The notes beneath the pieces were generated by a model. That model was not told the DNA's origin, did no database searches, and saw nothing but the letters and a program-made list of their open reading frames with translations. Source: Pseudomonas sp. LD120 (GTDB lineage Bacteria; Pseudomonadota; Gammaproteobacteria; Pseudomonadales; Pseudomonadaceae). Taken from it: a stretch of 64,000 nucleotides of DNA. How positions within the stretch are numbered: position 1 is the stretch's first letter; every line of letters starts with the position of its first letter. The stretch is from assembly GCF_009861525.1 (NCBI RefSeq), contig NZ_WVHL01000001.1, positions 434,001 to 498,000 of the forward strand, in the 5' to 3' direction. Positions 285 through 49,116 of the stretch are shown here, in pieces. The translations under genes were made by a program, and so were the position numbers.

Positions 285-2270
285 ATGTTCGCGCCGGCCG
301 ACACTGCGCATTTCGTGCTGTCCATCCTTGCCGTTCGCCACGACTTCAAGGTGCTGGCCTTCAAGGGTCACGAAGCCATCAGCGAGCTGTATGCAATTCA
401 TGTCGAGCTGGTTTCGGACAACCCCAATGTCGATCTGGAAAGCCTGCTCAACCGGCCGGCGTTCCTACAGTTCGGCCTCAAGGGTGAAGGCATTCATGGG
501 CTGATCGACGATATCGAAGTCGGCGACAGCGGCAAGCGCATGACCCGCTATCACCTGATCCTGCGCCCTCACCTGTACCAGTTGCAGCACCGCCACAACC
601 AGCGGGTCTACCAGAACCTGACAGTGCCGCAGATCATCGCCAAGGTGCTCAAGGAACACGGCATCCTCGCCGACCAATACCGCTTCAACATTGCTCCCAA
701 GCCTTCAGTGCCCAGGGTGTATTGCGTGCAATACGGGGAGACGGACTTCCAGTTTCTACAACGCCTGTGCTTTGAAGACGGCATTCACTGGCACCACGAA
801 CACAGCCTCGACCAGCACCTGCTGGTGTTTTCCGACAACCAGACCGACTACCCGATCCTCGCCACCGCGCGCTATCAGCAAGGCAGCGGCCTGGCCGCCG
901 AAGACCCGGTGGTCAGCCATTTCGCGGTGCGTTTCAGCACCCGCACCAGCCAGGTGGTGCGCCGCGACTACAACCTGAAAAAGCCCGACCCGCGCAGCGC
1001 CTCCAGCGGCGCTAAACTCGATCCGGTGCCCAGCACCTTGCACAGTGCTGTGCGCAGCGAGGCCACCCCGGTGCTGGAAGACTATCGCTACCCCGGCCGC
1101 TACAGCACCGGCGCGGTGGGCAAGCAGTTGAGCCAGATCGCCCTCGAAGGCCACCGCGCCGACTACCAATTGGCCAAGGGGCAGAGTGATCTGTCGACCT
1201 TTCGCTGCGGCCATCTGGTCACCCTCAGCGAGCACCCGCGCGGCGAATACAACCAGATGTGGTTGCTGGTCAGCGTCGAGCACAAAGGTCGACAACCGCA
1301 GGTGCTGGAAGAGTCGGTCACCAGCGACGACCGCCACGACGGCTTTACCCAGGGTTACCGCAACCGCTTCAGCGCCATCCCCTGGGACACCTTCTTTCGG
1401 CCGCAAGAGCCGGCCCCCAAGCCCCGCCTGAGCAGCCAGACCGCGCTGGTGACCGGTCCTGCGGGGGAGGAAATCTGGTGTGACGAACACTCAAGGATAA
1501 AGATTCAGTTTCATTGGGACCGCGAGGGTGAGCGCAACGAGTTCTCCAGCTGCTGGGTGCGGGTGGCCACCAGCTGGGCCGGTGAAGGTTTTGGCCACGT
1601 GATCATCCCGCGCATCGGCATGGAAGTGCTGGTGAGCTTTATCGGCGGCGACCCTGAGCAGCCCCTGGTCACCGGCTGCGTGCCGAACCAGCACACGCCG
1701 GTGCCCTACCCACTGCCGGCGAACAAGACCCGCAGCGTGTTCAAGACCCGCAGCAGCCTGGGCGGCAATGGCTCCAACGAGTTGCGCATCGAGGATCGCG
1801 CCGGCCAGGAGCAAATCTACATCCATGCCCAGCGCGATCAGGACTGCACCGTCAGGAACAATGAAAGCCATTGGGTCGGCGTCAACCGTGTGCACTCGGT
1901 CGGCCAGGACGAAACCATCAGCGTCGGCCAGAACAGCTTGAGAACGGTCAAGGTCGACGACACCCTGCAAGTCGGCGCCACCAAGAAGGACAGCATTGGC
2001 ACCCAATACCTGATCGAAGCCGGAGAAAAAATACGCCTGGTCTGCGGCCAGAGCGTGATCGAAATGCTGGCCACGGGGGAAATCAATCTCTACGGCAGCG
2101 CCTTCAACTTCTCGGTGACCGGCGACGCGCAAATCAACACCGGCGGCCAGCTCGACATGAATATGCCCGGTGGCGCCGCCGCCACAGGGCCCGAAGCGGA
2201 CGGCGTCAAAGGCAGCATCGAGGCCGGAGTCGAGGCCAGCTTCTCGCCGCCGCCAACCGCCGCCTCCTAA
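285..2270 (+). CDS. vgrG: T6SS spike protein VgrG (TssI)
   Basis: This is a 661-residue VgrG. Trimers of this family form the puncturing tip on the Hcp tube of the type VI secretion system and carry effectors out of the cell. The N-terminal 370 residues look like the gp27-like part (FVLSILAVRHDFKVLAFKGH, then the GETDFQFLQRLCFEDGIHWH block). The gp5 OB-fold follows at about 390-480 (SRIKIQFHWDREGERNEFSS, WVRVATSWAGEGFGHVIIPR, IGMEVLVSFIGGDPEQP). The C-terminal beta-helix ends in a Gly/Ala-rich tail with no added effector domain. AAGGA lies just upstream of the ATG. It is followed after 26 bp by an EagR-type chaperone gene and then a PAAR-Rhs gene, so this VgrG probably loads that Rhs toxin. 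The structural sheath genes are not in the window. Confidence 0.95.
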   Translation: MFAPADTAHFVLSILAVRHDFKVLAFKGHEAISELYAIHVELVSDNPNVDLESLLNRPAFLQFGLKGEGIHGLIDDIEVGDSGKRMTRYHLILRPHLYQLQHRHNQRVYQNLTVPQIIAKVLKEHGILADQYRFNIAPKPSVPRVYCVQYGETDFQFLQRLCFEDGIHWHHEHSLDQHLLVFSDNQTDYPILATARYQQGSGLAAEDPVVSHFAVRFSTRTSQVVRRDYNLKKPDPRSASSGAKLDPVPSTLHSAVRSEATPVLEDYRYPGRYSTGAVGKQLSQIALEGHRADYQLAKGQSDLSTFRCGHLVTLSEHPRGEYNQMWLLVSVEHKGRQPQVLEESVTSDDRHDGFTQGYRNRFSAIPWDTFFRPQEPAPKPRLSSQTALVTGPAGEEIWCDEHSRIKIQFHWDREGERNEFSSCWVRVATSWAGEGFGHVIIPRIGMEVLVSFIGGDPEQPLVTGCVPNQHTPVPYPLPANKTRSVFKTRSSLGGNGSNELRIEDRAGQEQIYIHAQRDQDCTVRNNESHWVGVNRVHSVGQDETISVGQNSLRTVKVDDTLQVGATKKDSIGTQYLIEAGEKIRLVCGQSVIEMLATGEINLYGSAFNFSVTGDAQINTGGQLDMNMPGGAAATGPEADGVKGSIEAGVEASFSPPPTAAS

Positions 2271-5700: not shown

Positions 5701-6956
5701 CCGACAGCCTGCTCGGCCTCCCGCAACATCCCGCCACCGCCCTGCACCGCCGCTATCACTACAGCCCGGGCGGTGAAGTACAGCGGATCGTCGACAAACA
5801 GCGCGGTATCACCGACTTCCATTACGACGCCAATGGCCAACTACGCAGCCGCCAACCAAACCACCCACAACTGCACACCGAAGACTTCTCCTACGACCCG
5901 GCCGGCAACCTTTGCGGCAGCGGCAGTTGGCAATTCGACAAGATCCAGAACAACCGCCTCATAGCCTTCAAGGACCTGCGTTTTACCTACGACGACTGGG
6001 GCAACCTCAGCGAAAAGAGCAGCGCCAATGGCGCAATGCAACGCTTCACCTACGATTGCGAAAACCGCCTGATCCACGCCCAGACCTGGCACGGCGCAAC
6101 CCTGCACAGCGAAGCGCGTTACCACTACGACGCCCTCGGGCGCCGCATTGGCAAGCAGGTCACCCAAAGCGGCCAGACCCAAGAAACGACCTTCCTCTGG
6201 CAAGGCCTGCGCCTGCTGCAAGAGCAACAACCGCAGCGCCACAGCACCTACGTCTACGAGACCGACAGCTACGCGCCCCTGGCGCGCATCGATACAGACC
6301 CCACACTGCCCGAGCAGCCGGGCCAGACCTACTACTTCCACACCGACCAGATCGGCACCCCACAGGAAATGACCGACGCCCAAGGACATGTCGTGTGGCG
6401 CGCGTACTACAAAGCCTGGGGCGGATTGGAAGCGATATCACCGAATACGGTGGAACAGAATCTACGCTTTCAGGGGCAATATCACGACCGGGAAAGCGGG
6501 CTGTACTACAACACCTTCAGGTACTACGATCCGGCGGTGGGACGGTTTACCACGCAGGACCCGATTGGCTTGGCGGGCGGCGAGAACCTGTATCGGTATG
6601 CGCCGAATGCGTTGGGGTGGGTTGATCCGCTTGGATTAACAGCTTGCTCTGTTAAATTCAGCAAAAATTTTGAGGGAAAATTAAAAAAACATGCTCAAGA
6701 TATATATATGACCTCTAGGCGGTTAGGTGTTCCCGTCGCAAAAGGAGATGTGGCAGGAAAGAAAAATTTTATTCTCTCCATAGTAAATGATAGCGGAAAC
6801 TTAGCTAATCCGAATTTTAAATGGAATACAATTGAGTCTATGCGCGTATACGTGAAGGATAAAGCCGTGATCTTAGTAAACAACTCAACGAATGAAATAA
6901 CTACATTTCTTCATAGGGATCGCATATCCTCATTTTTACAAGAGGCAATAAAGTGA
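2790..6956 (+). CDS. rhs: PAAR-domain Rhs effector with variable C-terminal toxin
   Basis: This 1388-residue Rhs toxin is delivered by the T6SS. A hydrophobic N-terminal segment (residues 18-55, LVGFLVGAALGIALIAAVAI) is followed by a PAAR-like tip (about 70-155: SGSPDVFINGLNAAQ, KVFINGLPAARKGDKLTCGS) and a second hydrophobic stretch (about 165-235). The YD-repeat shell fills about 240-1230. The conserved cleavage-site block DPIGLAGGENLYRYAPNALG and DPLG end near base 6640. The last ~105 residues are AT-rich and unlike the core: this is the polymorphic toxin tip (KNFEGKLKKHAQDIYMTSRR, SMRVYVKDKAVILVNNSTNE, FLHRDR). Its charged beta pattern suggests a small BECR-fold RNase, but I cannot name it. 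The stop overlaps the immunity gene by 4 bases. The 5110-6540 region is virtually identical in DNA to the second rhs copy. Confidence 0.93.
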   Translation: MFEAARLNDELAHSNALVGFLVGAALGIALIAAVAIITVATCGFGTALLAGVLAGVGGMALTAAGEAIGRMSKAPAGGITSGSPDVFINGLNAAQVQDSLGICTKHPAPPMVAEGSAKVFINGLPAARKGDKLTCGSVIDSGSDSVFIGAEKEQYLEIEDEIPEWLRTTVDILMAVAGAAGGLLKLALTAGKIGLKAVAPCALKFAAGFVAGELAGRFVIGPAIGRVAGGLIGNPVDAISGRKLLLEESETDFSLPGLMPITWTRFYASDIIHEGLLGRGWVLPWEQSLRLEDQQLFLRDNQGRDLPLPPLEPGERAYLTDEQLFVVRSEGGHYLLQSLDNTFFYFGELTDDGQSSPLRRIENALGHFVNFSYDHQQRLRDLCASGGMRLHLCYEQHEQRLSRVERVVDNQPVETLVHYQYDAHGQLSRVINRNGERVRGFAYDQGLMVAHENALGLRCHYRWATFSDGLHRVAEHWTSDGERYLFYYDLAQRQTHIKDVLGRTARIDYSEGRRVIASRDFGGEQYRFQLDESGNMTGLELPDGSTLSFTYDKLSRLEEETDPLGRSIRYSYHLDTDLITAIERADGSSQHWTYDRQGNLLDSTDPLGHVTQFFNTDAGLPHTRIDPLGNHTRLWWNELGQIEQYQDCSGQLTRYSYDSHLHLASITDALKCTTRLTRKADGEVLRVDHPGGTHDQYRYNALGQLLSHTNADGHTTSLARTSRGLPSRRKDARGQQVHYQYDKAQRLIALLNENKAAYRFSYDASDRLQEEVRIDGLRRRFSYSLNGQLSQLEEIATGPSLLQVTRVQQFEHDAAGRLLSRVTSDARLDYHYDDADRLIAVERLPGKLGEALGIRPDRLAFSYDAADQLLSESSNTGNIAYHYDALGNLTGLTLPDARQLNQLYYGSGHLHQINLDGHLISDFERDALHRETLRTQGTLTSRYGYDSQGRKLWQAAIHLPHEQLSQLQEKTDSLLGLPQHPATALHRRYHYSPGGEVQRIVDKQRGITDFHYDANGQLRSRQPNHPQLHTEDFSYDPAGNLCGSGSWQFDKIQNNRLIAFKDLRFTYDDWGNLSEKSSANGAMQRFTYDCENRLIHAQTWHGATLHSEARYHYDALGRRIGKQVTQSGQTQETTFLWQGLRLLQEQQPQRHSTYVYETDSYAPLARIDTDPTLPEQPGQTYYFHTDQIGTPQEMTDAQGHVVWRAYYKAWGGLEAISPNTVEQNLRFQGQYHDRESGLYYNTFRYYDPAVGRFTTQDPIGLAGGENLYRYAPNALGWVDPLGLTACSVKFSKNFEGKLKKHAQDIYMTSRRLGVPVAKGDVAGKKNFILSIVNDSGNLANPNFKWNTIESMRVYVKDKAVILVNNSTNEITTFLHRDRISSFLQEAIK

Positions 6957-7477
6957 AGGCAACTAATTATCATCGCTTTTTTCTAAAGAAAATATCATCA
7001 CTACTTTACAACAAAACCATCTCATCACTTATCATGGTAAGTGATGAGAATGGAGAGCTAATTGATAATGTGAGCTTTTTTGAAGTTGATTATGGCGGTG
7101 TAGTTGGATTTTATATAAATGGAGCCAATCCACTTATTTCCACCAACCTTATTAATGAATTCGATGATTTTAATTTGTATTCTTTGTATTCAGTCTTGAG
7201 CGAACGCAGGAGTGGAGATTTTCTTCCGTTTAAAGTTGAGTTTATAAAAGTTTTTTTCCACTCTGAATACAATGAAGCTTTCTCGATTTTTCTCTCATCT
7301 GCGGATTTTTCTTCATCCATCCTTATTGTGTTCTCTACAGATGAGATTCATGCATATATCAATTGTGGTGAGCGTGATTTGGTTAAAATGATCAAAGAGC
7401 ACTTAACTCAATTCGAAGACATTGATTTTTTTACGTGCAAGATAGATATTGGTGATGAAGAGTGGTTCTGCGTTTAA
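6953..7477 (+). CDS. Putative immunity protein for the first Rhs toxin
   Basis: A 174-residue acidic soluble protein starts with GTG inside the rhs stop (GTGA overlap, 4 bases), so the two are translationally coupled. This is the usual layout of a toxin tip and its cognate immunity gene. The DNA is AT-rich like the toxin tip and unlike the Rhs core, a sign that tip and immunity gene were acquired together. I do not recognise the family. The sequence has alternating hydrophobic and acidic stretches (SFFEVDYGGVVGFYINGANP, FFTCKIDIGDEEWFCV), no membrane span and no signal peptide. Function is inferred from position only. Confidence 0.75.
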   Translation: MKATNYHRFFLKKISSLLYNKTISSLIMVSDENGELIDNVSFFEVDYGGVVGFYINGANPLISTNLINEFDDFNLYSLYSVLSERRSGDFLPFKVEFIKVFFHSEYNEAFSIFLSSADFSSSILIVFSTDEIHAYINCGERDLVKMIKEHLTQFEDIDFFTCKIDIGDEEWFCV

Positions 7478-7504
7478 AGTAAATTATTTTTCCAACATCC
7501 TTTA

Positions 7505-7745
7505 GAGGGTGTAGACAAAATTAAGCTGTAAGCCGACGAGCCAGTATTCTGGCCTCGGCCAACCATACCCATGCCTCACTCACATCGAACAACCGATCGT
7601 GGTGCATGGTCAGCCTCCTAGGATTTACTCGGTGATACTGCGTTGAAACGGTCTCGGAATGCTCATTTACAACCAGTAAACTCCGCTTCCTCAACCGTTT
7701 TCACCTTGCCTGACCTTCGTCTCAAAGCTTTTCATACAGAGCCTA
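7505..7745 (-). pseudogene. Remnant of an insertion sequence (transposase C-terminus)
   Basis: On the minus strand the codons from 7607 to the stop at 7521 read MHHDRLFDVSEAWVWLAEAR and then ILARRLTA. I recognise this as the C-terminal tail of a transposase common in Pseudomonas, probably IS5-like. The bases up to about 7745 look like the rest of that element's end region. No body of the transposase remains on either side, so this is a scar. It separates the first immunity gene from an orphan AT-rich gene and suggests the region was rearranged through an IS. Confidence 0.6.
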
Positions 7746-7796
7746 ATACGCCAACGATGAAAAATCAGAAATTCATATGAAATAACGGGTGTCTTT

Positions 7797-8405
7797 ATGA
7801 AAAGCGAACGTCAAGAACTTGAAAAAGAGTTTTACGAAATCCAGTCAAAGTGTGATGTATTTCTTAACTCACTCTTAAAAATTTCCAAAGAAGAAGTAGC
7901 ACGAAAAATCATAAGCAAAGGGGCGTTATTTAATTTGAGGCCGTTTGAAATCCAGAGAGCCGGTTTTAAGCTAGGAAAAGAACTAAAAAACCTCCCAAAA
8001 ACCATTAAAAATACCCACGTTTACTACTTCGATAAAAGCGACAGAGTAGTGATGATAGATATTTACGGACAGTCTGAATCAATTATTAACAGAGACTTCT
8101 ATTTCTATGACAAAGAAAGCATAAAAAGCATATATATAAACAGCACAAAAACAATAAGAAATATAACCATTAGCTCTATAGTCAATGGAAAGGTTTTGCG
8201 AGATGCTAATTTCGGAAAGTATGGCAGCAGCACTTCTGATTACCTATATGATGGCGAAAGGCTGAGCTCGATATTGGTTATGCAAAAACAGCATGACCAA
8301 GAGCTTTGTTCAACATATCAAGTACTGTTCTATTATTTGGATGGTATAGTAAGCAAAATTATTAATGAATTCCCTAATGGCTATCAGGAGATCCGCTACC
8401 CATAG
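7797..8405 (+). CDS. Orphan AT-rich protein, possible immunity protein
   Basis: This 202-residue protein starts at ATG 7797 and ends with INEFPNGYQEIRYP. It has a charged helical N-terminus (MKSERQELEKEFYEIQSKCD), then repeated short beta stretches (VYYFDKSDRVVMIDIYGQSE, NRDFYFYDKESIKSIYINST) with Tyr/Asp-rich turns. No signal peptide or membrane span is visible. I do not recognise a family. Its AT-rich composition matches the toxin tips and immunity genes nearby, and it lies between an IS scar and the second small-gene unit with no toxin in front of it. The most likely explanation is an orphan immunity gene left after loss of its rhs tip, but this is inference. Confidence 0.6.
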   Translation: MKSERQELEKEFYEIQSKCDVFLNSLLKISKEEVARKIISKGALFNLRPFEIQRAGFKLGKELKNLPKTIKNTHVYYFDKSDRVVMIDIYGQSESIINRDFYFYDKESIKSIYINSTKTIRNITISSIVNGKVLRDANFGKYGSSTSDYLYDGERLSSILVMQKQHDQELCSTYQVLFYYLDGIVSKIINEFPNGYQEIRYP

Positions 8406-8956
8406 GAGGGCTAAGTCACGACAAAAGCCACAAATAAAATCTCATCCAGAACTAATTACGATTTCTTGAGCCCTTTGGATAAAAACACTGGCTAAGATGC
8501 AAAACCAGACTTACTTAATATAATTACTTTGATACCTCTTATAGCTATAACAAAGTTTGTTCTTTCAAAGAAAGACCTAAAAATATCTTGTTTTTTACTT
8601 GGGCAAGAAAAAAGAGAAGAATAGAGTGTAATCGACAATTTTTATCTTTGATTTTTCCTGACTTTTTGTCTTTTGCTACATCAGCGATGAGCACAGCTGC
8701 TGTGAGCTATGCATTTATGAGACGAATATCGATCAACCGTACGACCGCGAAACCCGTCACAGCGAAAGCATCGGCTTCGACTGAGGAATGCCATTGAACC
8801 GGCGGCGTGCTTGATCCACACTCGCGCTCCTGAGTCCTACAGCAAACTCAGAAAGTCCTGTCTCGCCAGGGCCTTGTTCCGTTCTGGAGTGCATGCCTAT
8901 AGTTCCGAGTCGTCCTGATGACGAACGGGTTTGGCGACCCTATGACCGTGTGCGAG
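8406..8956. other. AT-rich intergenic stretch, no gene supported
   Basis: No convincing coding region is seen. Composition changes from AT-rich (to about 8700) to balanced (after 8740), suggesting a junction between acquired DNA and backbone. A short open frame at 8588-8797 lacks a ribosome binding site and any recognisable sequence. The stretch ends at the terminator-like hairpin of the first leader element. Confidence 0.5.
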
Positions 8957-9133
8957 AACCCTGGGCTTGCTTTGCAGGGTTTTTCGCATCCGTAAAGCTG
9001 CCTTATGGCGGCTGTACGCGGGAGACCTTCGGGTCTGCCGGCTCCCCGGTCCCGGTTCGCCAACCTGCGTACAGCTGCCACCCTCCGTTTGGCGACGATC
9101 AAGTGGCGCTCTCAACCGACCGAGGCGTTATTT
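8957..9133 (+). promoter_or_regulatory. Structured leader element, copy A (candidate cis-RNA)
   Basis: A terminator-like hairpin comes first: AACCCTG (8957-8963) pairs with CAGGGTT (8975-8981) and runs into a T tract. A long stem follows, TGGCGGCTGTACGC (9006-9019) with GCGTACAGCTGCCA (9067-9080). It encloses a short hairpin AGACC-TTCG-GGTCT (9023-9036), a UUCG tetraloop when transcribed. The start codon of the small gene is at 9134. Copy B at 13941-14132 has the same layout with compensating changes. The element may be a cis-regulatory RNA; a DNA-level palindrome is the alternative. Confidence 0.6.
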
Positions 9134-9193
9134 ATGAACATGTCCCGTCCTGAATAAGGTTGACACCTTCTGACCTTATTCAAGGAGAGGGTG

Positions 9194-9595
9194 ATGAGCA
9201 CTGAGATCAAGCGCACGCAGAGTGATTACACGCTGGCTTTTAAACTGGCCGTGGTGGATCAGGTCGAAAAAGGCGAGTTGAGTTATAAAGAGGCTCAACA
9301 GCGCTACGGTATCCAAGGTCGATCAACTGTTCTGGTCTGGTTGCGCAAGCATGGCCTCCAGGACTGGAGCCAAGGCGCTTCAATTCGCTCTTCGAGGACC
9401 ATTTCCGTGAATGAGCCCGCCCTGCCGTTAACCCCGGAACAACGTATCAAGGAGCTGGAAGCGCAGCTCGCGCTGTCGAATCAGAAAGCCCAGTTCCTTG
9501 AGGCGGTAGTCAATGTTCTAAAGAACGATTACGGGATCAGCGTCGTAAAAAAGCGTCCCGGCAAGTCCTCACGCAAAAGCAAATCCAGGACCTGA
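9194..9595 (+). CDS. IS3-family transposase OrfA
   Basis: OrfA has 133 residues from ATG 9194; a GTG three bases upstream at 9191 is an alternative start. GGAGAGG precedes the start. The N-terminal half is a helix-turn-helix of the transposase-8 type (YTLAFKLAVVDQVEKGELSY, KEAQQRYGIQGRSTVLVWLR). A leucine-zipper-like coiled coil follows (PEQRIKELEAQLALSNQKAQ). In this family OrfA binds the inverted repeats and is also the N-terminal part of the OrfAB transposase made by frameshifting. The shift site lies at 9547-9553, 42 bases before the OrfA stop. Confidence 0.9.
   Translation: MSTEIKRTQSDYTLAFKLAVVDQVEKGELSYKEAQQRYGIQGRSTVLVWLRKHGLQDWSQGASIRSSRTISVNEPALPLTPEQRIKELEAQLALSNQKAQFLEAVVNVLKNDYGISVVKKRPGKSSRKSKSRT
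9547..9553 (+). promoter_or_regulatory. Programmed -1 frameshift site A AAA AAG
   Basis: In the OrfA frame the codons are GTA AAA AAG, so the heptamer A AAA AAG is in the correct phase for simultaneous tRNA slippage. A -1 shift here enters the OrfB frame, which is open from this point through 10416. This is the standard way IS3-family elements make the OrfAB transposase. Confidence 0.8.
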
Positions 9596-9618
9596 GTATC
9601 AGTAGGGCTTGCCAGTTC

Positions 9619-10416
9619 ATGGGGATTAGCCGACAGGCCTACTACAAGCGCAACCAAGCTCAGGACGCGCGCTTGACCCTCGACCAGAGAGTGATGGATT
9701 TCGTCCAATACAAGCGCTTGCACCAGCCCCGCTTGGGCACCCGCAAGCTGCACCATCTGCTGCATTGCCAGCCCCTGCTTGAACTTCAAGTAGGCCGTGA
9801 TCGGCTGTTTGCAATCTTGCGCGAACATCGCCTGCTGGTGGCTCGCAAGCGTGCTTACCATAAGACTACCGACAGTCATCATCGCTTCCGGCGCCATCCA
9901 AACCTGCTTAAATCCGGCCCTGATCAAGTGGTGCCAAATGGTCCGGAGCAGGTCTGGGTGGCCGACATCACCTATCTACCCACTCGCGAAGGTGTGGCGT
10001 ATCTGAGTCTTGTGACCGACGCTTACTCGCGCAAGATTGTGGGTTATCACGTCCATGAAAACTTACGGACCGAGTCGGTAATACGAGCGCTGCGCAGTGC
10101 CGTGAAGCAGCGTCAAACCGAATTACCGTTGGTGCATCACTCGGATCGGGGTAGCCAATACTGTTCTGCGCTTTATCAGGCGCTGCATGCCAAACACGGA
10201 ATCCGTTGTTCGATGACGGACGGTTATGACTGCTACCAGAATGCTTTGGCGGAGCGGGTGAATGGGATCTTGAAGACAGAGTTTCTGTTTCATCGACCAG
10301 AGAACTTGGCGCATGCAAGGAAGATGGTGAGTGAGTCGGTATCAATTTATAACGCTGAGCGACCCCATCTAGCGCTCAAATACAAAACGCCCGATGCGGT
10401 GCATCGGGCGTTTTGA
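9619..10416 (+). CDS. IS3-family transposase OrfB (DDE integrase core)
   Basis: OrfB has 265 residues when counted from ATG 9619, but the frame is open back to the slippery site, so the real product is probably the OrfAB fusion. The N-terminus is an HTH_21 region (MGISRQAYYKRNQAQDARLT). The rve integrase core carries the catalytic triad: Asp in VWVADITYLPT, Asp in VHHSDRGSQYCS and Glu in NALAERVNGILKTE. It ends with AERPHLALKYKTPDAVHRAF, typical of the family. No inactivating change is seen. Confidence 0.92.
   Translation: MGISRQAYYKRNQAQDARLTLDQRVMDFVQYKRLHQPRLGTRKLHHLLHCQPLLELQVGRDRLFAILREHRLLVARKRAYHKTTDSHHRFRRHPNLLKSGPDQVVPNGPEQVWVADITYLPTREGVAYLSLVTDAYSRKIVGYHVHENLRTESVIRALRSAVKQRQTELPLVHHSDRGSQYCSALYQALHAKHGIRCSMTDGYDCYQNALAERVNGILKTEFLFHRPENLAHARKMVSESVSIYNAERPHLALKYKTPDAVHRAF
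10384..10414 (+). terminator. Terminator at the end of the IS
   Basis: AAAACGCCCGATGC and GCATCGGGCGTTTT form a perfect 14-bp stem with loop GGT, ending in four T. It overlaps the last codons of orfB. It would stop IS transcription before the disrupted small gene. Confidence 0.75.
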
Positions 10417-10728
10417 GTGAAACAAGTGTCAACCTATTTCAGGACTAGACAACAGATACATGCCGATCACCGGCCACGATTGCACCATCCCTTCCCTGCT
10501 GATCGATACCCAGGCCCCTGCCGATGTACTGTACGAAGCAGCCGCCTACCGCATCCGCGCTGTCACTCAACTGCTGGAAAACTTCGCCGCCCGCCCCGAC
10601 ATCCCAGGCGATGCCGTGGTGCTGCAAGAGCTGGCCCTAGTCTGTGCCATTCCGCTGCGCGATGGCTGTGATGTGCTGGATGTGTTAGGACGTCATTTGC
10701 AGGCGCAGGCCGTGAGCTGAATGCTGCC

Positions 10729-10758
10729 TGTAGCGAGGGAGCAAGCTCCCTCGCTACA
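10729..10758. repeat. 30-bp perfect palindrome (REP-like)
   Basis: TGTAGCGAGGGAGC, loop AA, GCTCCCTCGCTACA. This type of extragenic palindrome is common in Pseudomonas. It sits exactly where rhs-homologous sequence begins, so it may mark the recombination junction of the second rhs copy. Confidence 0.7.
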
Positions 10759-13034
10759 ACCGCTACAGCAACCTGCTCGACAGCACCGATCCTCTGGGTC
10801 ACGTCACCCAGTTCTTCAACACCGATGCCCTGAAGTGCACCACGCGCCTGACCCGCAAAGCCGATGGCGAAGTGCTGCGCGTTGACCATCCAGATGGCAG
10901 CCACGACCAGTACCGTTACAACGCCCTTGGCCAGTTGCTCAGCCACACCAATGCCGATGGCCACACCACCAGCCTGGCGCGCACGCCCCGGGGCCTGCCC
11001 AGCCAACGCAAGGACGCCCGTGGCCAGCAGGTTCACTATCAATACGACAAAGCCCAGCGCCTGATCGCTCTGCTGAATGAAAACAAGGCCGCCTACCGCT
11101 TCAGCTACGACGCCAGCGATCGCCTGCAGGAAGAAGTGCGCATCGATGGCCTACGCCGCCGCTTCAGCTATAGCCTCAACGGCCAACTGAGCCAACTGGA
11201 AGAAATCGCCACCGGCCCGAGCCTGCTCCAGGTCACTCGCGTGCAACAGTTCGAGCACGACGCCGCGGGGCGCCTGCTCAGCCGGGTCACCAGCGACGCT
11301 CGCCTGGATTATCACTACGACGATGCCGATCGCCTGATTGCCGTCGAGCGCCTGCCGGGAAAACTGGGCGAAGCCCTGGGCATCCGCCCCGATCGCCTGG
11401 CCTTCAGCTACGACGCCGCCGACCAACTGCTGAGCGAAAGCAGCAACACCGGCAATATTGCCTACCACTATGACGCCCTGGGCAATCTCACCGGCTTGAC
11501 CCTGCCCGACGCTCGCCAGCTCAATCAGCTCTATTACGGCAGCGGCCACCTGCACCAGATCAACCTCGACGGCCACTTGATCAGCGACTTCGAGCGCGAC
11601 GCCCTGCACCGCGAAACCCTGCGCACCCAAGGCACCCTCACCAGTCGCTACGGCTACGACAGCCAGGGGCGCAAGCTCTGGCAAGCCGCGATCCACCTGC
11701 CCCACGAACAACTGAGCCAACTGCAGGAAAAGACCGACAGCCTGCTCGGCCTCCCGCAACATCCCGCCACCGCCCTGCACCGCCGCTATCACTACAGCCC
11801 GGGCGGTGAAGTACAGCGGATCGTCGACAAACAGCGCGGTATCACCGACTTCCATTACGACGCCAATGGCCAACTACGCAGCCGCCAACCAAACCACCCA
11901 CAACTGCACACCGAAGACTTCTCCTACGACCCGGCCGGCAACCTTTGCGGCAGCGGCAGTTGGCAATTCGACAAGATCCAGAACAACCGCCTCATAGCCT
12001 TCAAGGACCTGCGTTTTACCTACGACGACTGGGGCAACCTCAGCGAAAAGAGCAGCGCCAATGGCGCAATGCAACGCTTCACCTACGATTGCGAAAACCG
12101 CCTGATCCACGCCCAGACCTGGCACGGCGCAACCCTGCACAGCGAAGCGCGTTACCACTACGACGCCCTCGGGCGCCGCATTGGCAAGCAGGTCACCCAA
12201 AGCGGCCAGACCCAAGAAACGACCTTCCTCTGGCAAGGCCTGCGCCTGCTGCAAGAGCAACAACCGCAGCGCCACAGCACCTACGTCTACGAGACCGACA
12301 GCTACGCGCCCCTGGCGCGCATCGATACAGACCCCACACTGCCCGAGCAGCCGGGCCAGACCTACTACTTCCACACCGACCAGATCGGCACCCCACAGGA
12401 AATGACCGACGCCCAAGGACATGTCGTGTGGCGCGCGTACTACAAAGCCTGGGGCGGATTGGAAGCGATATCACCGAATACGGTGGAACAGAATCTACGC
12501 TTTCAGGGGCAATATCACGACCGGGAAAGCGGGCTGTACTACAACACCTTCAGGTACTACGATCCGGCGGTGGGGCGGTTTACCACCCAGGACCCGATTG
12601 GGTTGGCGGGTGGGGACAACCTATATCGGTATGCGCCGAATGCGTTGGGGTGGGTTGATCCGTGGGGATTAAGTTGTTCCCCTAAAGTTGCTAAACCAGG
12701 CAAGGTTGTTAATGATCTTAACGGGTTTACTGGTAAAGATTTCCACGTTGGAAATCAGACGCTTAAATTAGACAAGAAAGGGATGAAACATATATTGGAA
12801 CGTCACCACCCTGAATATTGGGATGGTTCAATAAAAGCCAAGCAAAGTTTCTTATCAGGCAAAATGTCAATAGATGATGTTTCTAAGGCTATTGGTGATG
12901 TAATGAAGCAAAATAGAAGTGCCTTATCAAACAAAGGTGGTTTAGGGCAATACCAAATAACAGGCACGTCCAATGGTGTTGAATATGTAGTTGGATTAAA
13001 AAATGGAAGAATAGGACAATTTTACCCAAAATGA
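10734..13034 (+). pseudogene. rhs: Orphan rhs tip 2: 5'-truncated rhs with intact toxin domain
   Basis: The rhs frame is open from 10734 but has no credible start; the first ATG is 10872. It lacks the PAAR and N-terminal half. Homology begins at the NLLDSTDPLGHVTQFFNTDA block, and about 50 codons are missing compared with the full rhs (NTDA joined to LKCTTRL). From about 11143 to 12570 the DNA is virtually identical to bases 5110-6540. After DPIGLAGGDNLYRYAPNALG the sequence becomes AT-rich near 12671. The ~120-residue tip contains GMKHILERHHPEYWDGSIKA, KMSIDDVSKAIGDVMKQN and YVVGLKNGRIGQFYP. The HILERHH segment suggests an EndoU-like/BECR RNase, but this is tentative. This is probably a silent tip cassette that could recombine into the complete rhs. 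Confidence 0.85.
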
Positions 13035-13486
13035 AAAACATAGTAATAGAGACATATATAAAGCAAGATAATAAGTATATAAGCATCTTTGATTTTGATG
13101 GCAATATAGCTGATCCGGATTATATCGAAGGTGCGTTAGTACTTTCAATAAATGGAGTTAGTCTTATTGATCTGTCGATGTATGACTATATTGATGAGCT
13201 CTGGTGTTATTTATCAGAAGGGCTGTCATTAATACATGAGGGAAAAAATTTTAGCTGTTTCTTTCCTGATCAGCCAATAGAAGTCAAGTTTATTTGTTTA
13301 AATCGAGAGGTTAGAGTTATCGTTAATTGCCATGAAGAAGTCAAGATTGATGTGGACAAGGATTATTTTTTGATATCGATGAGTAATCACGCTCGGGCCT
13401 TCTTTAATCGCTTAATGGAGATAGAACCATCATCAAAAGAGTCGAGCATGCGTATTATTAGTTGCTTGAATGAGATCAAGTTATAA
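13031..13486 (+). CDS. Putative immunity protein for orphan Rhs tip 2
   Basis: A 151-residue protein whose ATG overlaps the toxin stop (ATGA, 4 bases). It is acidic and AT-rich like the tip. Segments such as NKYISIFDFDGNIADPDYIE and ELWCYLSEGLSLIHEGKNFS suggest a soluble alpha/beta protein with no export signal. I do not recognise a family. The translational coupling and the position directly behind a toxin tip are what support the immunity call. Retention of an intact immunity gene behind a truncated rhs fits protection against sibling strains that carry this tip. Confidence 0.75.
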   Translation: MKNIVIETYIKQDNKYISIFDFDGNIADPDYIEGALVLSINGVSLIDLSMYDYIDELWCYLSEGLSLIHEGKNFSCFFPDQPIEVKFICLNREVRVIVNCHEEVKIDVDKDYFLISMSNHARAFFNRLMEIEPSSKESSMRIISCLNEIKL

Positions 13487-13940
13487 TTTTATTCCTATGT
13501 ATATTTAGGGAGGCGCTGAGTTATTCAGTTTTAGCCCCGAGGGCGCGCTGCAAGCCTTGATTTATAAGGGCGGCGTTCGCCGAACTGGGAGTTAATCAGC
13601 GGTTCATTAGTAGAGTGACACGTCAGGTTAATTTTTGTGCAGCATGGCTCTTCAAAAAAATCACGTTCTGAAACGTATATGAGAGTTTGCCTTCTAACAT
13701 TTAATCGTTCCGCACTCGCTACTACAGCCTTATGATGAGTGTAAATATAAATGAGCGCGGCCGTGAAAACTGAGTGCAGACTCTTTTCTGAGAACGAGAC
13801 GTTACATTAAGATTTCACGACCGCTCTTTTACATTTCGGAAAACAATGCTCTTGCACTGACGATGTGGTGTCCATATAGTTACGCCCGTCGCTGCCAATT
13901 CAGCGACCGGACTTGGCCGTCCGACCCTCCATGCGCATCA
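13487..13940. other. Intergenic region between immunity gene 2 and leader copy B
   Basis: No gene is supported. One imperfect inverted repeat is visible, GAGCGCGGCCGTGAAA (13753-13768) with TTTCACGACCGCTC (13813-13826). Otherwise it is of mixed composition without recognisable content. Confidence 0.5.
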
Positions 13941-14132
13941 AGCGCCACCATCCGAAAGCGGGCGCTTTTTTCGCGCTCGCACATTCGTATTATGGCGACT
14001 GTGCGTGGGACACCTTCGGGTGTGCCGGGGTCATGGAGCTCGGTCGGCCAACCCGCGTACAGTTGCCACCCTATTTTCGTTTGGCCGCGAAAAGTGGCAG
14101 CTCATTAACCCTCTCCATGGAGCGTCACCGTT
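13941..14132 (+). promoter_or_regulatory. Structured leader element, copy B (candidate cis-RNA)
   Basis: The order is the same as in copy A. A terminator-like hairpin AGCGCC (13941-13946) with GGCGCT (13961-13966) runs into six T. A long stem follows, TGGCGACTGTGCGTGGG (13993-14009) with CCCGCGTACAGTTGCCA (14052-14068). Inside it is ACACC-TTCG-GGTGT (14010-14023). In the UUCG hairpin one base pair is swapped relative to copy A (G-C to C-G), and long-stem changes keep pairing through G-U wobbles. The start codon of the small gene is at 14133. Confidence 0.6.
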
Positions 14133-14405
14133 ATGGATTACCACGCTTTCACCTCCTCCAACACCACCGACCACCCCGTCGCCTTTATCAACCCTCAAGC
14201 AACTCTGCTTGATCTACTGAACTACGCCGGCCTGCACATCCGCGCTGCCCGCGACATGTTGGACAGCGTCTCCAGCATGACCAGCCGCAACGCCGACAAT
14301 CTCGACCTGACGCGCTTCTCCAGCGTGGCAACCTTGTTGTTGCAGGACGGATGCGACGTATTGCGGGTGGCGGAACAACAGGCCATGGATTTACCAGAAC
14401 CTTAA
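14133..14405 (+). CDS. Small DUF3077-like protein
   Basis: A 90-residue helical protein starting MDYHAFTSSNTTDHPVAFIN, with a middle helix LLDLLNYAGLHIRAARDMLD and the ending LLLQDGCDVLRVAEQQAMDL. It is a paralogue of the IS-split gene ending at 10720, sharing the DGCDVL motif and the overall plan of a Pro/Asn-rich start and two helices. The DUF3077/DUF6124 label is my best family guess; the function is unknown to me. It lies 65 bases after the long stem of leader copy B, with a weak GGAG upstream, and is followed by an orphan rhs tip just as its paralogue is. Confidence 0.65.
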   Translation: MDYHAFTSSNTTDHPVAFINPQATLLDLLNYAGLHIRAARDMLDSVSSMTSRNADNLDLTRFSSVATLLLQDGCDVLRVAEQQAMDLPEP

Positions 14406-14567
14406 CCCTCCAAGTCCAGGTTCGCGTGCCGGTACTCGTCATCGGGCATCTAGACCAGGCCCTGGTTGTTCTGCTGTGAAGCCTGCCGGTAACGGCAGGC
14501 GTCAAACACACAACGATAATGCTAGCCGTTCGGTCAAGGTCTTTATCATTGGCGGCCGGCAAGCTCC

Positions 14568-16028
14568 TTGCCCTACGCTTTGAAATTCGCGGCCGGTGCG
14601 ATAACCGGTGAATTGGTCAGTTGCTATGCCGTCGACCCGACTATCAGTCGTGTGGCCGGTGCCCTGTTCGGCAATTCGGTGAATGCCATCAGCGGGCGCA
14701 AACTGCTCTACTACGGCAGCGGCCATTTGCCCCACGTACAACTGAGCCAACTGCAGGAAAAGACCGACAGCCTGCTCGGCCTCCCGCAACATCCCGCCAC
14801 CGCCCTGCACCGCCGCTATCACTACAGCCCGGGCGGTGAAGTACAGCGGATCGTCGACAAACAGCGCGGTATCACCGACTTCCATTACGACGCCAATGGC
14901 CAACTACGCAGCCGCCAACCAAACCACCCACAACTGCACACCGAAGACTTCTCCTACGACCCGGCCGGCAACCTTTGCGGCAGCGGCAGTTGGCAATTCG
15001 ACAAGATCCAGAACAACCGCCTCATAGCCTTCAAGGACCTGCGTTTTACCTACGACGACTGGGGCAACCTCAGCGAAAAGAGCAGCGCCAATGGCGCAAT
15101 GCAACGCTTCACCTACGATTGCGAAAACCGCCTGATCCACGCCCAGACCTGGCACGGCGCAACCCTGCACAGCGAAGCGCGTTACCACTACGACGCCCTC
15201 GGGCGCCGCATCGCTAAAGCAGTCATGCAAAGCGGCCAGACCCAAGAAACGACCTTCCTCTGGCAAGGCCTGCGCCTGCTGCAAGAACAACAACCCCAGC
15301 GCCACAGCACCTACGTCTACGAGACCGACAGTTACGTACCATTGGCCCGAATCGACACTGATCCCGGACTGCCAGAGCGAGAAGCCAGGCTCTACTACTT
15401 CCACACCGACCAGATCGGCACCCCACAGGAAATGAGCGACGCCCAAGGGCACGTGGTGTGGCGCGCGTACTACAAAGCCTGGGGCGGATTGGAGGCGTTA
15501 TCACCGAATACGGTGGAGCAGAATCTGCGCTTTCAGGGGCAGTATCACGACCGGGAAAGCGGGCTGTACTACAACACCTTCAGGTACTACGATCCGGCGG
15601 TGGGACGGTTTACCACGCAAGACCCAATCGGGTTGGCGGGTGGGGACAACCTATATCGGTATGCGCCGAATGCGTTGGGGTGGGTTGATCCGTGGGGTTG
15701 GGAGTGCTGGAGCACTGCAAGGAAAAATTTCTGGAAAAACGAGATTAAAGTAAACGCATCAAATTACTCTGCTGCAAACGCACAAAGAATGGCTAAGGGG
15801 AGTGCACCTCGCATACAGGTTGAGGTACTGAAGAATGGTCGGCGTATCATTAAAGACGTTTCGATGGAGTTGCATCATACCAATATTCCTCAACGGGTCG
15901 GAGGGGCTGGAGTCCACAACTCTAGCAACCTTACCGCATTAACCCCATGGGCACACGAAGCCATTGATCCATTTAGAAAAACTGGCAAAACTCTAATCAA
16001 GATAATAAAGGACACAAGTACATGGTAA
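14568..16028 (+). pseudogene. rhs: Orphan rhs tip 3: rhs fragment with intact HNH nuclease toxin
   Basis: The frame can start only at a weak TTG (14568). About 45 codons match the membrane/pre-shell part of the full Rhs (ALKFAAG...AISGRKLL). This is fused to YYGSGHL from deep in the YD core, and then to LPHxQLSQLQEK further on: two internal deletions with short shared motifs at the joints. The remainder follows the Rhs core to NALGWVDPWG near 15700. The ~105-residue tip (ARKNFWKNEIKVNASNYSAA, SMELHHTNIPQR, HNSSNLTALTPWAHEAIDPF) has the ELHH...H...N...H layout of HNH/endonuclease VII-like toxins, so it is probably a DNase. Without the N-terminal delivery region it is likely a silent cassette. 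Confidence 0.85.
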
Positions 16029-16492
16029 ATGAATCCGAAGAGATTCGAGCTTTTCTAGAGTCTGAAAAATACATTTATCTGACAAAAAAAAATAATAAAA
16101 ATCACAGAAAAAAACTTTGTGACGACCTGTATGACGCCGAACTTGAATTCGGAAGCAACTGCCTAAAAAGCTCAGAATTAAGCCTGCTCGATATTGATAA
16201 ACTTCTTGAAAACGACGCGGACACTCTAGAAAAATTCTGCATAAAACTTATAAGAGCCGAAGATACATTTGCCGTTGACCAAGAGTTCAACCTTCTTGAT
16301 GAAAACGAAAAAGAAAAAGAAAACGAAGTATATGTTGGGCACAGCCAAACTTTTTTGCTCACATTCGCAATTTTGTTCTTGTTGCTGAGGGATAGACGGG
16401 ATCACCTGCCAACTTACTTAAAAAAAACAAGACAACCAAATGCTAAAAAATATCAGCATGCTCTTGAGGTGGCATACGAGTCCATCACATGA
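16022..16492 (+). CDS. Putative immunity protein for the HNH tip
   Basis: A 156-residue AT-rich, highly charged protein. Its ATG lies seven bases inside the end of the toxin frame, so translation is coupled. It is Lys/Glu-rich and helical (DIDKLLENDADTLEKFCIKL, LLDENEKEKENEVYVGHSQT), with one hydrophobic stretch FLLTFAILFLLL that is probably a buried helix. Acidic patches suit neutralisation of a basic nuclease. Family not recognised; the immunity role is inferred from position directly behind the toxin tip. Confidence 0.75.
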   Translation: MVNESEEIRAFLESEKYIYLTKKNNKNHRKKLCDDLYDAELEFGSNCLKSSELSLLDIDKLLENDADTLEKFCIKLIRAEDTFAVDQEFNLLDENEKEKENEVYVGHSQTFLLTFAILFLLLRDRRDHLPTYLKKTRQPNAKKYQHALEVAYESIT

Positions 16493-16659
16493 TCTCTAAT
16501 CATTAACGCACTTGGATTTGATACGGACAGTTAAATAATTCGATAGATAGTAAATAATACCCAAAAATGAAGTCGATTATATTTAGTGAAAAGATAGACT
16601 ATAATATGCTACATTAAATCCGCTACAGAACTTAAAAAATTTAAGAGCATGAAGATACC

Positions 16660-16985
16660 ATGACCGCATTAGACCCAAAAAGTACTGCACTATCTGGTGT
16701 ATCGCATAAAGAACACATAAGGCATTAAATAATGAAGAGGGTTTATTAAAATCTCCCATAAACCAACTAACAAAAAGCAAGAAATTGGAGCAGAAAGGGT
16801 TTGATCCCAGCGCATTTGTAAAGTCGCATTGGTATTTAAAAGGCTTTTTCTTAATTAACCTTGTGGATTAATAGTAGCTAAACGAGGTGCAAAGGAATTT
16901 AAGCAATATTTAAAATCCTCCCGTATTCCTGACTGGAAGAAATATTCAAAAAAAATTTAAGCTTTGTGCCTTGGGAGATTTTTAT
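16660..16985 (+). pseudogene. Decayed AT-rich coding remnant
   Basis: Three collinear open pieces in different frames can be followed. They are MTALDPKSTALSGVSHKEH from 16660, then KALNNEEGLLKSPINQLTKS and QKGFDPSAFVKSHWYLKGFF, then LIVAKRGAKEFKQYLKSSRI and PDWKKYSKK. Two frame changes would link them into a ~100-residue protein. Composition matches the immunity and tip genes, so this is plausibly a dead immunity or tip gene. The family is unknown, and part of the apparent continuity could be chance. Confidence 0.35.
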
Positions 16986-16988
16986 ACT

Positions 16989-17514
16989 ACAAGAACCGCC
17001 TGATCCATGCCCAGACCTAGCATATCGCAACCCTGTACAGCGAGGCCCGCTACAACAACGACGCGCTAAGGCACGGGATCGGTAAACAGGTCACGCAAGA
17101 TGACCAGACCCAAAACACTACCTTTCCCTGCGCCTGCTGCAAGAACAACAACCGCAGCGCCACAGCACCTATGTTTATGAGCCGGACAGCGCACCATTAG
17201 CCCGAATCGACACTGATCCGACGCTGCCCGGAAAGCCTGGCCAGATCTACTACTTCCACACCGACCAGATCGGCACGCCACAGGAAATGACCGACGCCCA
17301 AGGGCACGTGGTGTGGCGCGCGTACTACAAAGCCTGGGGCGGATTGGAGGCGTTATCACCGAATACGGTGGAGCAGAATTCGCGCTTTCAGGGGCAGTAT
17401 CACGACCGGGAAAGCGGGCTGTACTACAACACCTTCAGGTACTACGATCCGGCGGTGGGGCGGTTTACCACCCTGGACCCGATTGGGTAGGCGGGTGAGG
17501 AGAACCTGTACCGG
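16989..17514 (+). pseudogene. rhs remnant 4, stop-containing
   Basis: Translated pieces match the end of the Rhs core: NRLIHAQT then an in-frame TAG, SEARY, TYVYEPDS, YYFHTDQIGTPQEMTDAQGH, VVWRAYYKAWGGLEALSPNT and YNTFRYYDPAVGRFTTLDPI. Several frame changes and a TAG at 17488 break it, and no toxin tip follows. Homology stops at about 17514, 34 bases from the end of gbcB, which marks the right border of the Rhs island against the betaine genes. Confidence 0.85.
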
Positions 17515-48774: not shown

Positions 48775-49116
48775 TTAAACGACATCATCCGGTTCTATGC
48801 GAAGCAGTTCGCTCGCGTTGGTAAAAACACGTTGCGTCAATCCATTGGAGTCCGTTACATCCCGATAGACCTTCCCTCCCGGCGTCACAATCTTGTAGCT
48901 AAACCCGGGAACCGGTTCGCCTTCAGCGTCCAGCCGCTCAAACTGCTCGTTGTATGGCTGTTGAGTAGATCCACACGCGGTCTAGTCCCCCTCACGGGCA
49001 ACGGGCGATCCGTCAAAAATGACATCGGGCGATCCACTGACAATCGGGTTCACGCCATGCCCGGGAATCGGGCGGGCAGTGGGATCGGAGACACGAGCGG
49101 CGGGCTTCCCTGACAT
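48775..49116 (-). pseudogene. PAAR-domain protein, interrupted by TAG and internally shortened
   Basis: From ATG 49116 (AAGGAG upstream) the frame reads MSGKPAARVSDPTARPIPGH, NPIVSGSPDVIFDGSPVARE, GD, a TAG at codon 45, then TACGSTQQPYNEQFERLDAE, GEPVPGFSYKIVTPGGKVYR and DVTDSNGLTQRVFTNASELL. The first half is a PAAR repeat (the stop probably replaces Lys in GDKTACG). After CGS the second half of the PAAR fold is missing, and the sequence jumps to the transthyretin-like segment often found on VgrG- or PAAR-linked effectors. It is 10 bases upstream of the effector-like pseudogene, so the unit was PAAR adaptor, effector, immunity. Confidence 0.75.

What the first reader, a model, noticed from the sequence alone, without database searches (positions are those of the whole stretch)
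8957..14132. Two copies of a candidate structured leader RNA with compensatory changes
Upstream of two paralogous small genes lies the same structure: a 14-17 bp stem (9006-9019 with 9067-9080; 13993-14009 with 14052-14068) enclosing a UUCG hairpin. The hairpin stem is AGACC/GGTCT in one copy and ACACC/GGTGT in the other, a clean G-C to C-G swap. Long-stem differences are wobble-compatible. The surrounding sequence has diverged much more. I do not recognise this as a named RNA family. It could be a riboswitch, thermosensor or protein-binding leader of DUF3077-like genes.
Basis: partly seen in the sequence, partly recalled or inferred. Interest (0 to 1): 0.75.

Follow-up and report, generated by a model that had tools for sequence, protein, structure and literature searches.

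The report
Self-silencing antisense RNA gene cassettes
The two RNA structures match the known phage C4 antisense RNA family and carry loops complementary to their own leader and to the start region of the small gene behind them, so each is predicted to switch that gene off; this bacterium holds 28 such copies and a related species about 40, mostly in front of small proteins of unknown function rather than known phage genes.

Summary
Both copies are full-length C4 antisense RNAs (Rfam RF01695; 79.0 and 75.6 bits, cut-off 45). The genome has 28 copies; 110 of 119 sampled genomes of its genus have at least one (median 14, capped search), against 21 of 280 others sampled from the class, with 1-6 copies and once 10. 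The common layout is a cassette: promoter-like box, target sites b1/a1, sometimes a terminator, C4, target sites b2/a2 near the ribosome-binding site, small gene. In five sets (144 loci) C4's two specificity segments fit their own targets better than other copies' (0 of 20,000 permutations each; control window not significant). Between homologous cassettes with changed loops, own downstream targets beat swapped ones in 53 of 53 pairs (14 of 14 with each locus used once). Cargo is mostly DUF3077-like, DUF6124-like, BRO-N or, in this window, an unnamed family. Most likely mechanism: C4-type self-silencing by leader termination and start-site occlusion; these steps are inferred, there are no RNA data. 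Not found in my paper searches: the expansion in Pseudomonas, this cargo, and the co-evolving private addresses. What the cargo does stays unknown.

The parts
8874..8903 (+). copy 1: promoter-like TTGTTC-N18-TATAGT
   Evidence: pattern found in locus L011 = copy 1; the stricter consensus scan did not list it
8931..8937 (+). copy 1: upstream target b1 (TTGGCGA), complementary to b'
8944..8948 (+). copy 1: possible upstream target a1 (GACCG, 5 bases only; weak)
   Evidence: the a' loop of copy 1 ranks its own upstream window only 24th of 28
8956..8982 (+). copy 1: terminator-like hairpin with T run
   Evidence: fold -10.4 kcal/mol; a terminator-like site at 8966-8978 in the scan
9001..9085 (+). 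copy 1: C4 antisense RNA; a' CGGTC 9047-9051, b' TCGCCAA 9057-9063
   Evidence: RF01695 79.0 bits; sites
9089..9125 (+). copy 1: downstream targets b2 9089-9095 (TTGGCGA) and a2 9118-9125 (GACCGAGG, one mismatch), a2 covering the GAGG ribosome-binding site
9134..9140 (+). copy 1: start of the F3-family gene, cut off by the insertion
   Evidence: read by eye
9141..10451 (+). insertion sequence with rve-domain transposase (ORFs 9191-9595, 9619-10416), ACA duplicated on both sides
   Evidence: PF00665; ends
10452..10720 (+). copy 1: rest of the F3-family gene
   Evidence: open frame; resembles the F3 protein of L012
13852..13880 (+). copy 2: promoter-like TTGCAC-N17-TATAGT
   Evidence: pattern in L016 = copy 2; not listed by the stricter scan
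13874..13927 (+). copy 2: c4-a1b1-like target region
   Evidence: RF03163 43.9 bits, cut-off 46.7, E 7.2e-9
13913..13933 (+). copy 2: upstream targets b1 13913-13919 (TTGGCCG) and a1 13927-13933 (CTCCATG)
13940..13972 (+). copy 2: terminator-like hairpin with T run
   Evidence: fold; inside an isrK match of 41.4 bits, cut-off 50; not listed by the consensus scan, whose loop limit is 8
13988..14073 (+). copy 2: C4 antisense RNA; a' CATGGAG 14032-14038, b' CGGCCAA 14045-14051
   Evidence: RF01695 75.6 bits; sites
14081..14119 (+). copy 2: downstream targets b2 14081-14087 (TTGGCCG) and a2 14113-14119 (CTCCATG), a2 ending at the first G of the GGAG ribosome-binding site
14133..14405 (+). copy 2: intact gene of the unnamed F3 family, 90 aa, predicted strand plus helical hairpin
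   Evidence: AlphaFold2 mean pLDDT 82.1

Best explanation
Each element is a copy of the C4 antisense RNA inside the leader of a small gene, with two segments complementary to sites before and after itself in that leader, and is predicted to silence its own transcript. From the promoter-like box the transcript would run through b1/a1, a terminator-like hairpin (clear in some copies only), C4 and b2/a2 into the gene. C4 is likely cut out by RNase P, as reported for phages P1 and P7. Its third-stem loop (a') and junction segment (b') would then bind b1/a1 of later transcripts, favouring early termination, and b2/a2 next to the ribosome-binding site, blocking translation. In some copies a short leader ORF overlaps the main gene at ATGA, like icd before ant in P1 (icd/ant layout recalled). 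SHOWN by sequence: family membership, stem covariation, fit to own targets far above non-cognate and swapped controls, placement near the start site, cargo families. INFERRED: processing, termination, translational block, and that absence of the cognate C4 (for example on entry into a cell without it) is what turns the gene on.
For: RF01695 over cut-off for both copies and for 28 of 28 own-genome matches. Stem covariation. Own-target fit: 0 of 20,000 permutations in each of five sets for both segments and both windows, control window not significant; own target first in 120 of 144 loci when both segments and windows are summed, ties counted as first. Swap test 53 of 53 pairs downstream, 50 of 53 upstream; 14 of 14 and 13 of 14 with each locus used once. 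a2 carries SD-like bases and is followed by a start codon within 2-13 nt in 51 of 88 loci against 19.4% for random segments of the same windows. Promoter-like box in 59 of 88 loci, about 1 per set of 28-30 in shuffles. T run between a1 and C4 in 34 of 88, shuffled mean 10. 49 of 59 DUF6124 domains in three genomes have C4 within 700 nt upstream on the same strand. C4 RNAs of A. baumannii are expressed and look processed by RNA-seq (PMC5320573, passages).
Against: No transcript, processing or repression data for any Pseudomonas copy. Copy 1: a1 is weak (own upstream window 24th of 28 for a') and its gene is broken by an IS. In 24 of 144 loci another locus' target fits better. 37 of 88 loci fail the SD-plus-start-codon criterion, copy 2 among them by one base, and 54 of 88 have no T run, so termination cannot be general in this form. 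The variable loop lies at the ribosome-binding site here, whereas PMC5320573 words the phage case the other way round (a' upstream, b' at the site); my a'/b' labels go by position in the RNA. Six of 28 own loci have no recognised cargo.
Confidence: 0.85

Rival explanations
1. The C4 copies act mainly in trans, on other bacterial messages or on incoming phages, and their fit to the neighbouring gene is inherited baggage.
For: PMC5320573 suggests both roles for A. baumannii (passages). Non-cognate fits as strong as the own one occur: 29 of 756, 7 of 870 and 108 of 870 ordered pairs in three genomes for both segments together.
Against: The fit is to the own leader and the own start site and is kept through loop changes; baggage would decay.
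Confidence: 0.08
2. The copies are decaying remnants of prophage immunity regions; sequence still scores as C4 but most regulate nothing.
For: Some own copies lack recognised cargo or fit poorly (L015, L024, L027); copy 1 is broken by an IS; BRO-N and, outside the genus, AntA and Rha antirepressors occur as cargo.
Against: Compensatory change of loops and two target sites, a promoter-like box in 59 of 88 loci and intact cargo frames in front of the start sites speak for use. Single proteins of F3, DUF3077-like and DUF6124-like groups find no match in 50,697 phage records, while a BRO-N cargo protein finds 872.
Confidence: 0.05
3. A riboswitch, thermosensor or protein-binding leader.
For: A stable structured leader in front of small genes.
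Against: The third-stem loop, where a binding core could sit, varies (similarity 0.58 against 0.90 for the scaffold in 169 within-genome pairs of scaffold identity 0.85 or more) and follows complementary sites in the same leader.
Confidence: 0.02

Closest known systems
C4 antisense RNA of phages P1 and P7 (Rfam RF01695)
   Same: Same fold and family by covariance model; two specificity segments; targets before and after C4 in the same leader region; small gene(s) behind.
   Different: Many chromosomal copies per genome; cargo here mostly DUF3077-like, DUF6124-like or F3 instead of the antirepressor ant; the variable loop lies at the ribosome-binding site, while PMC5320573 describes the phage case the other way round.
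c4-a1b1 target motif (Rfam RF03163)
   Same: Copy 2 matches over its full length just upstream of C4.
   Different: 43.9 bits, under the cut-off of 46.7; no match listed for copy 1.
isrK RNA (Rfam RF01394)
   Same: Copy 2's leader including the terminator hairpin matches.
   Different: 41.4 bits, under the cut-off of 50; followed by C4 and an F3 gene.
Group 1 sRNAs of Acinetobacter baumannii AB5075 (PMC5320573, passages only)
   Same: 21 C4-like RNAs in one genome, expressed and apparently processed.
   Different: Targets were left open in the passages I saw; here the own leader and start site are identified and the cargo named.
CI RNA immunity of phage P4 (recalled, no call)
   Same: A small RNA from a leader pairs with sites flanking it and causes early termination.
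   Different: Not compared by any search.

Membership tests
C4 antisense RNA (RF01695) | Covariance-model score over the curated cut-off | tested here: met
   79.0 and 75.6 bits, cut-off 45, model positions 1-87 of 87
C4 antisense RNA (RF01695) | Outer stem enclosing a tetraloop hairpin, a third stem-loop and a single-stranded b' segment, with covariation | tested here: met
   alignment to the model; 0 of 500 shuffles
C4 antisense RNA (RF01695) | a' and b' complementary to sites around the start region of the controlled gene | tested here: met
   for copy 2 own target ranks first, for copy 1 third of 28
C4 antisense RNA (RF01695) | Processing of the precursor by RNase P | not testable with these tools
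   known for P1/P7 from PMC5320573's passages; no RNA data here
P1/P7-type phage immunity (immI) operon | Controlled gene is an antirepressor | tested here: not met
   window cargo has no Pfam match; BRO-N does occur behind other Pseudomonas copies
P1/P7-type phage immunity (immI) operon | Lies in a phage or prophage | tested here: inconclusive
   cargo proteins not in 50,697 phage records; 7 of 20 flanking frames tested match Pfam, all ordinary chromosomal families; no prophage finder was run
c4-a1b1 (RF03163) | Score over the curated cut-off | tested here: not met
   copy 2: 43.9 against 46.7 with E 7.2e-9; nothing listed for copy 1
isrK (RF01394) | Score over the curated cut-off | tested here: not met
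   copy 2: 41.4 against 50
DUF3077 / DUF6124 (cargo) | Pfam match of the two window genes | tested here: not met
   no family at E up to 5; profile comparison of F3 with DUF3077-like 8% and with DUF6124-like 0.3% probability

The most novel reading that the evidence does not exclude
Pseudomonas has domesticated a phage immunity switch into a genus-wide system: commonly 10-40 self-silencing gene cassettes per genome, each with a private two-part antisense address that is written three times (once in C4, twice as target) and changes as a set. Each cassette keeps a small, mostly helical protein off in its home cell; the protein would appear only when its C4 runs short, for instance when the cassette enters a naive cell, so the proteins may be a large family of diversified antirepressors or transfer-triggered effectors.
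Probability: 0.35. Interest if true: 0.78.

Novelty: new variant of a known kind. Interest (0 to 1): 0.57.

Why it matters
C4 is known as a phage immunity RNA, and the multi-copy C4 RNAs of A. baumannii were left with open targets in the passages I saw. Here the likely targets are named from sequence in 120 of 144 loci, in the own leader, and the cargo of dozens of copies per Pseudomonas genome turns out to be small proteins of unknown function (DUF3077-like, DUF6124-like, one unnamed family). That would give a large group of hypothetical genes a concrete, testable control mechanism and a reason why they might look silent, and it offers a natural collection of diverse antisense pairs for work on RNA-RNA specificity.

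Tried and rejected
Riboswitch or thermosensor: set aside, because the loop varies and follows its targets. Selection for insulation between copies of one genome: not supported. Cross-pairing of a' within genomes is like that between genomes; close paralogues look more diverged than close homologues elsewhere when the high-scoring loci of other species are included (loop similarity p 2.6e-5, cross-pairing p 0.11), but not in the comparison of the three genomes searched alone (p 0.99 and 1.00). Faster change of the loop than of third codon positions: not supported (lower in 7 of 32 pairs). RNAduplex energies, which allow long bulges, gave the same direction (0 of 20,000 permutations) but ranked single loci poorly (own first in 3-9 of 28); I then used an ungapped pairing score. 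Cargo function by fold: the F3 model is fair (pLDDT 82) but Foldseek lists no solved structure with E up to 0.001; the DUF6124 model is weak (pLDDT 68). Conserved position: only 3 of 28 own loci share a flanking protein with the other Pseudomonas loci held. A mobility test with locus L010 was spoiled by a repeated element next to it. F3 related to DUF3077 or DUF6124: not shown.

Limits. Of G005's 42 matches (39 over the cut-off) only 30 had loci. Loci L145-L190 were not analysed. The 28 'other Pseudomonas' loci are the best-scoring ones of their genomes, not a random draw. The cargo profiles were seeded with some of the same loci, and the first-ORF picks are mechanical.
Full report
WHAT WAS CHECKED. 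The two structures are at the stated coordinates. Rfam identifies both as C4 antisense RNA, RF01695, over the curated cut-off and full length. The target-site family c4-a1b1 (RF03163) and isrK (RF01394) match just upstream of copy 2, both below their cut-offs.

HOW MANY. The genome holds 28 C4 copies, all over the cut-off. Two genomes searched alone have 42 matches (39 over the cut-off) and 30. In a sample of the class 22 of 281 genomes have C4, one of them the window's own; the other 21 carry 1-6 copies except one with 10 (cap 15). In a sample of the order 25 of 145 do, with 14 copies in one genome of another genus of the same family (cap 28).

ANATOMY. The oriented loci mostly show one order: a TTGnnn-N16-18-TAnnnT promoter-like box (59 of 88 loci of three genomes; 0.8-1.1 per set in shuffles), then b1 (median start -68.5 from C4) and a1 (-57), C4, b2 (offset +4) and a2 (+34), medians over the 63-80 loci whose pairing passes a score limit. 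A run of at least four T lies between a1 and C4 in 34 of 88 loci against 10 in shuffles. a2 contains SD-like bases and is followed by a start codon within 2-13 nt in 51 of 88 loci, against 19.4% for random segments of the same windows. In L002, L005 and L018 of this genome a short leader ORF overlaps the main gene at ATGA (read).

PAIRING TEST. With an ungapped pairing score, the third-stem loop (a') and the junction segment (b') were compared with the upstream and downstream windows of their own and of the other loci of the set. In each of five sets (own genome 28; G005 30 of 42; G018 30; best loci of 28 other Pseudomonas genomes; 28 loci outside the genus) none of 20,000 permutations reached the observed mean, for either segment and either window; a control window at +300..360 was not significant in any set (lowest: 1,164 of 20,000 for G005's a'). 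Summing both segments and windows, the own target ranks first (ties included) in 22 of 28, 27 of 30, 23 of 30, 20 of 28 and 28 of 28, i.e. 120 of 144. In this window copy 2 (L016) ranks first and copy 1 (L011) third of 28; the other own-genome misses are L003, L015, L024, L025 and L027. For a' alone copy 2's own windows rank 2nd upstream and 5th downstream, copy 1's 24th and 3rd.

SWAP TEST. Among 81 pairs of Pseudomonas loci in different genomes whose first ORFs are at least 50% identical, 53 have a' loops differing by three or more edits. The own downstream target scores better than the swapped one in 53 of 53, the upstream one in 50 of 53 (one equal, two worse); with each locus used once, 14 of 14 and 13 of 14. 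Two cassettes with 98.9% identical proteins (L003, L036) already have different loops. The loop and its targets therefore change together. Whether this reflects selection for insulation is open; my tests give no support for it, and the loop is not generally faster than third codon positions.

CARGO. With profiles seeded from some of these loci, the first genes after C4 fall into four groups in 22 of 28 (own), 30 of 30 (G005) and 26 of 30 (G018) loci: DUF3077-like, DUF6124-like, BRO-N, and an unnamed family called F3 here, which includes the window gene 14133-14405; the IS-broken gene of copy 1 belongs to it by eye but counts as 'none' in that call. DUF3077-like and DUF6124-like profiles are related (94.7%), F3 is not shown to be (8%). 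Conversely 49 of 59 DUF6124 domains of the three genomes have C4 within 700 nt upstream (7 of 10, 26 of 32, 16 of 17). Outside the genus, six of 28 cargo proteins that I picked by eye are AntA (2), Rha (2) and BRO-N (2). One protein each of F3, DUF3077-like and DUF6124-like groups finds no match in 50,697 phage records at E up to 0.01, while a BRO-N cargo protein finds 872 records. AlphaFold2 gives F3 as short strands plus a helical hairpin with pLDDT 82 and DUF6124 as a helical hairpin with pLDDT 68; no informative fold match.

SURROUNDINGS. Of 56 flanking frames of own-genome copies 20 were tested; seven have Pfam matches, all ordinary chromosomal families (gamma-glutamyltranspeptidase, LysR twice, AraC-type, MCP, HsdM, VirJ) and none a phage structural family. 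The two window copies sit among Rhs fragments; whether other copies do was not tested beyond this.

LITERATURE. Searches: 'C4 antisense RNA' (17 papers, 15 listed), 'DUF3077' or 'DUF6124' (1 paper, which names a DUF3077 pseudogene in a mutation list), two of 'C4 RNA', 'Pseudomonas', 'RF01695' (5), 'c4 antisense', 'Pseudomonas', 'sRNA' (4), and 'c4-a1b1' or the title of a later RNA survey (68 hold at least one, 10 listed; none of those ten holds 'c4-a1b1'). I saw passages only of PMC2864571, PMC5320573, PMC12189769, PMC8546580 and PMC9630843; the rest as listings. Nothing I saw describes C4 as controller of DUF3077 or DUF6124 genes or its expansion in Pseudomonas; PMC2864571 lists C4 for Proteobacteria and phages, and PMC5320573 says that it predicted C4 in Pseudomonadales among others. 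The library lacks most subscription journals and supplements were not available.

MECHANISM AND VERDICT. Most likely each copy silences its own cassette the way C4 silences ant in P1: termination in the leader and occlusion of the start site by a processed antisense RNA. Pairing and anatomy are shown by sequence; processing, termination, translational block and the inducing condition are inferred. The RNA is a member of a known family; its expansion in Pseudomonas with mostly non-phage cargo and private co-evolving addresses is a new variant.

Noticed in passing
window 9141-10451: Insertion sequence with rve-domain transposase that splits the copy-1 cassette gene just after its start codon; imperfect inverted ends and a 3-bp ACA duplication read by eye.
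   Followed up: partly
window 2790-17500: A full-length prePAAR/PAAR Rhs protein followed by displaced Rhs fragments (10872-13034, 14568-16028 and a remnant near 17287-17490) with different C-termini; the second fragment has sub-cut-off matches to nuclease toxin families.
   Followed up: no
window 49022-49093 (-): Pseudomonas sRNA P10 (RF01668), 62 bits, cut-off 37.
   Followed up: no
L080, L081 and G005:C1:3630531-3630617: Three C4-DUF6124 cassettes in a row in one related genome, two with identical C4: recent tandem duplication.
   Followed up: no
L038, L045, L048 (different genomes): BRO-N cassettes with identical a' loops although third codon positions of the cargo are only 70-78% identical: in this lineage the address is kept, unlike in most others compared.
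   Followed up: partly
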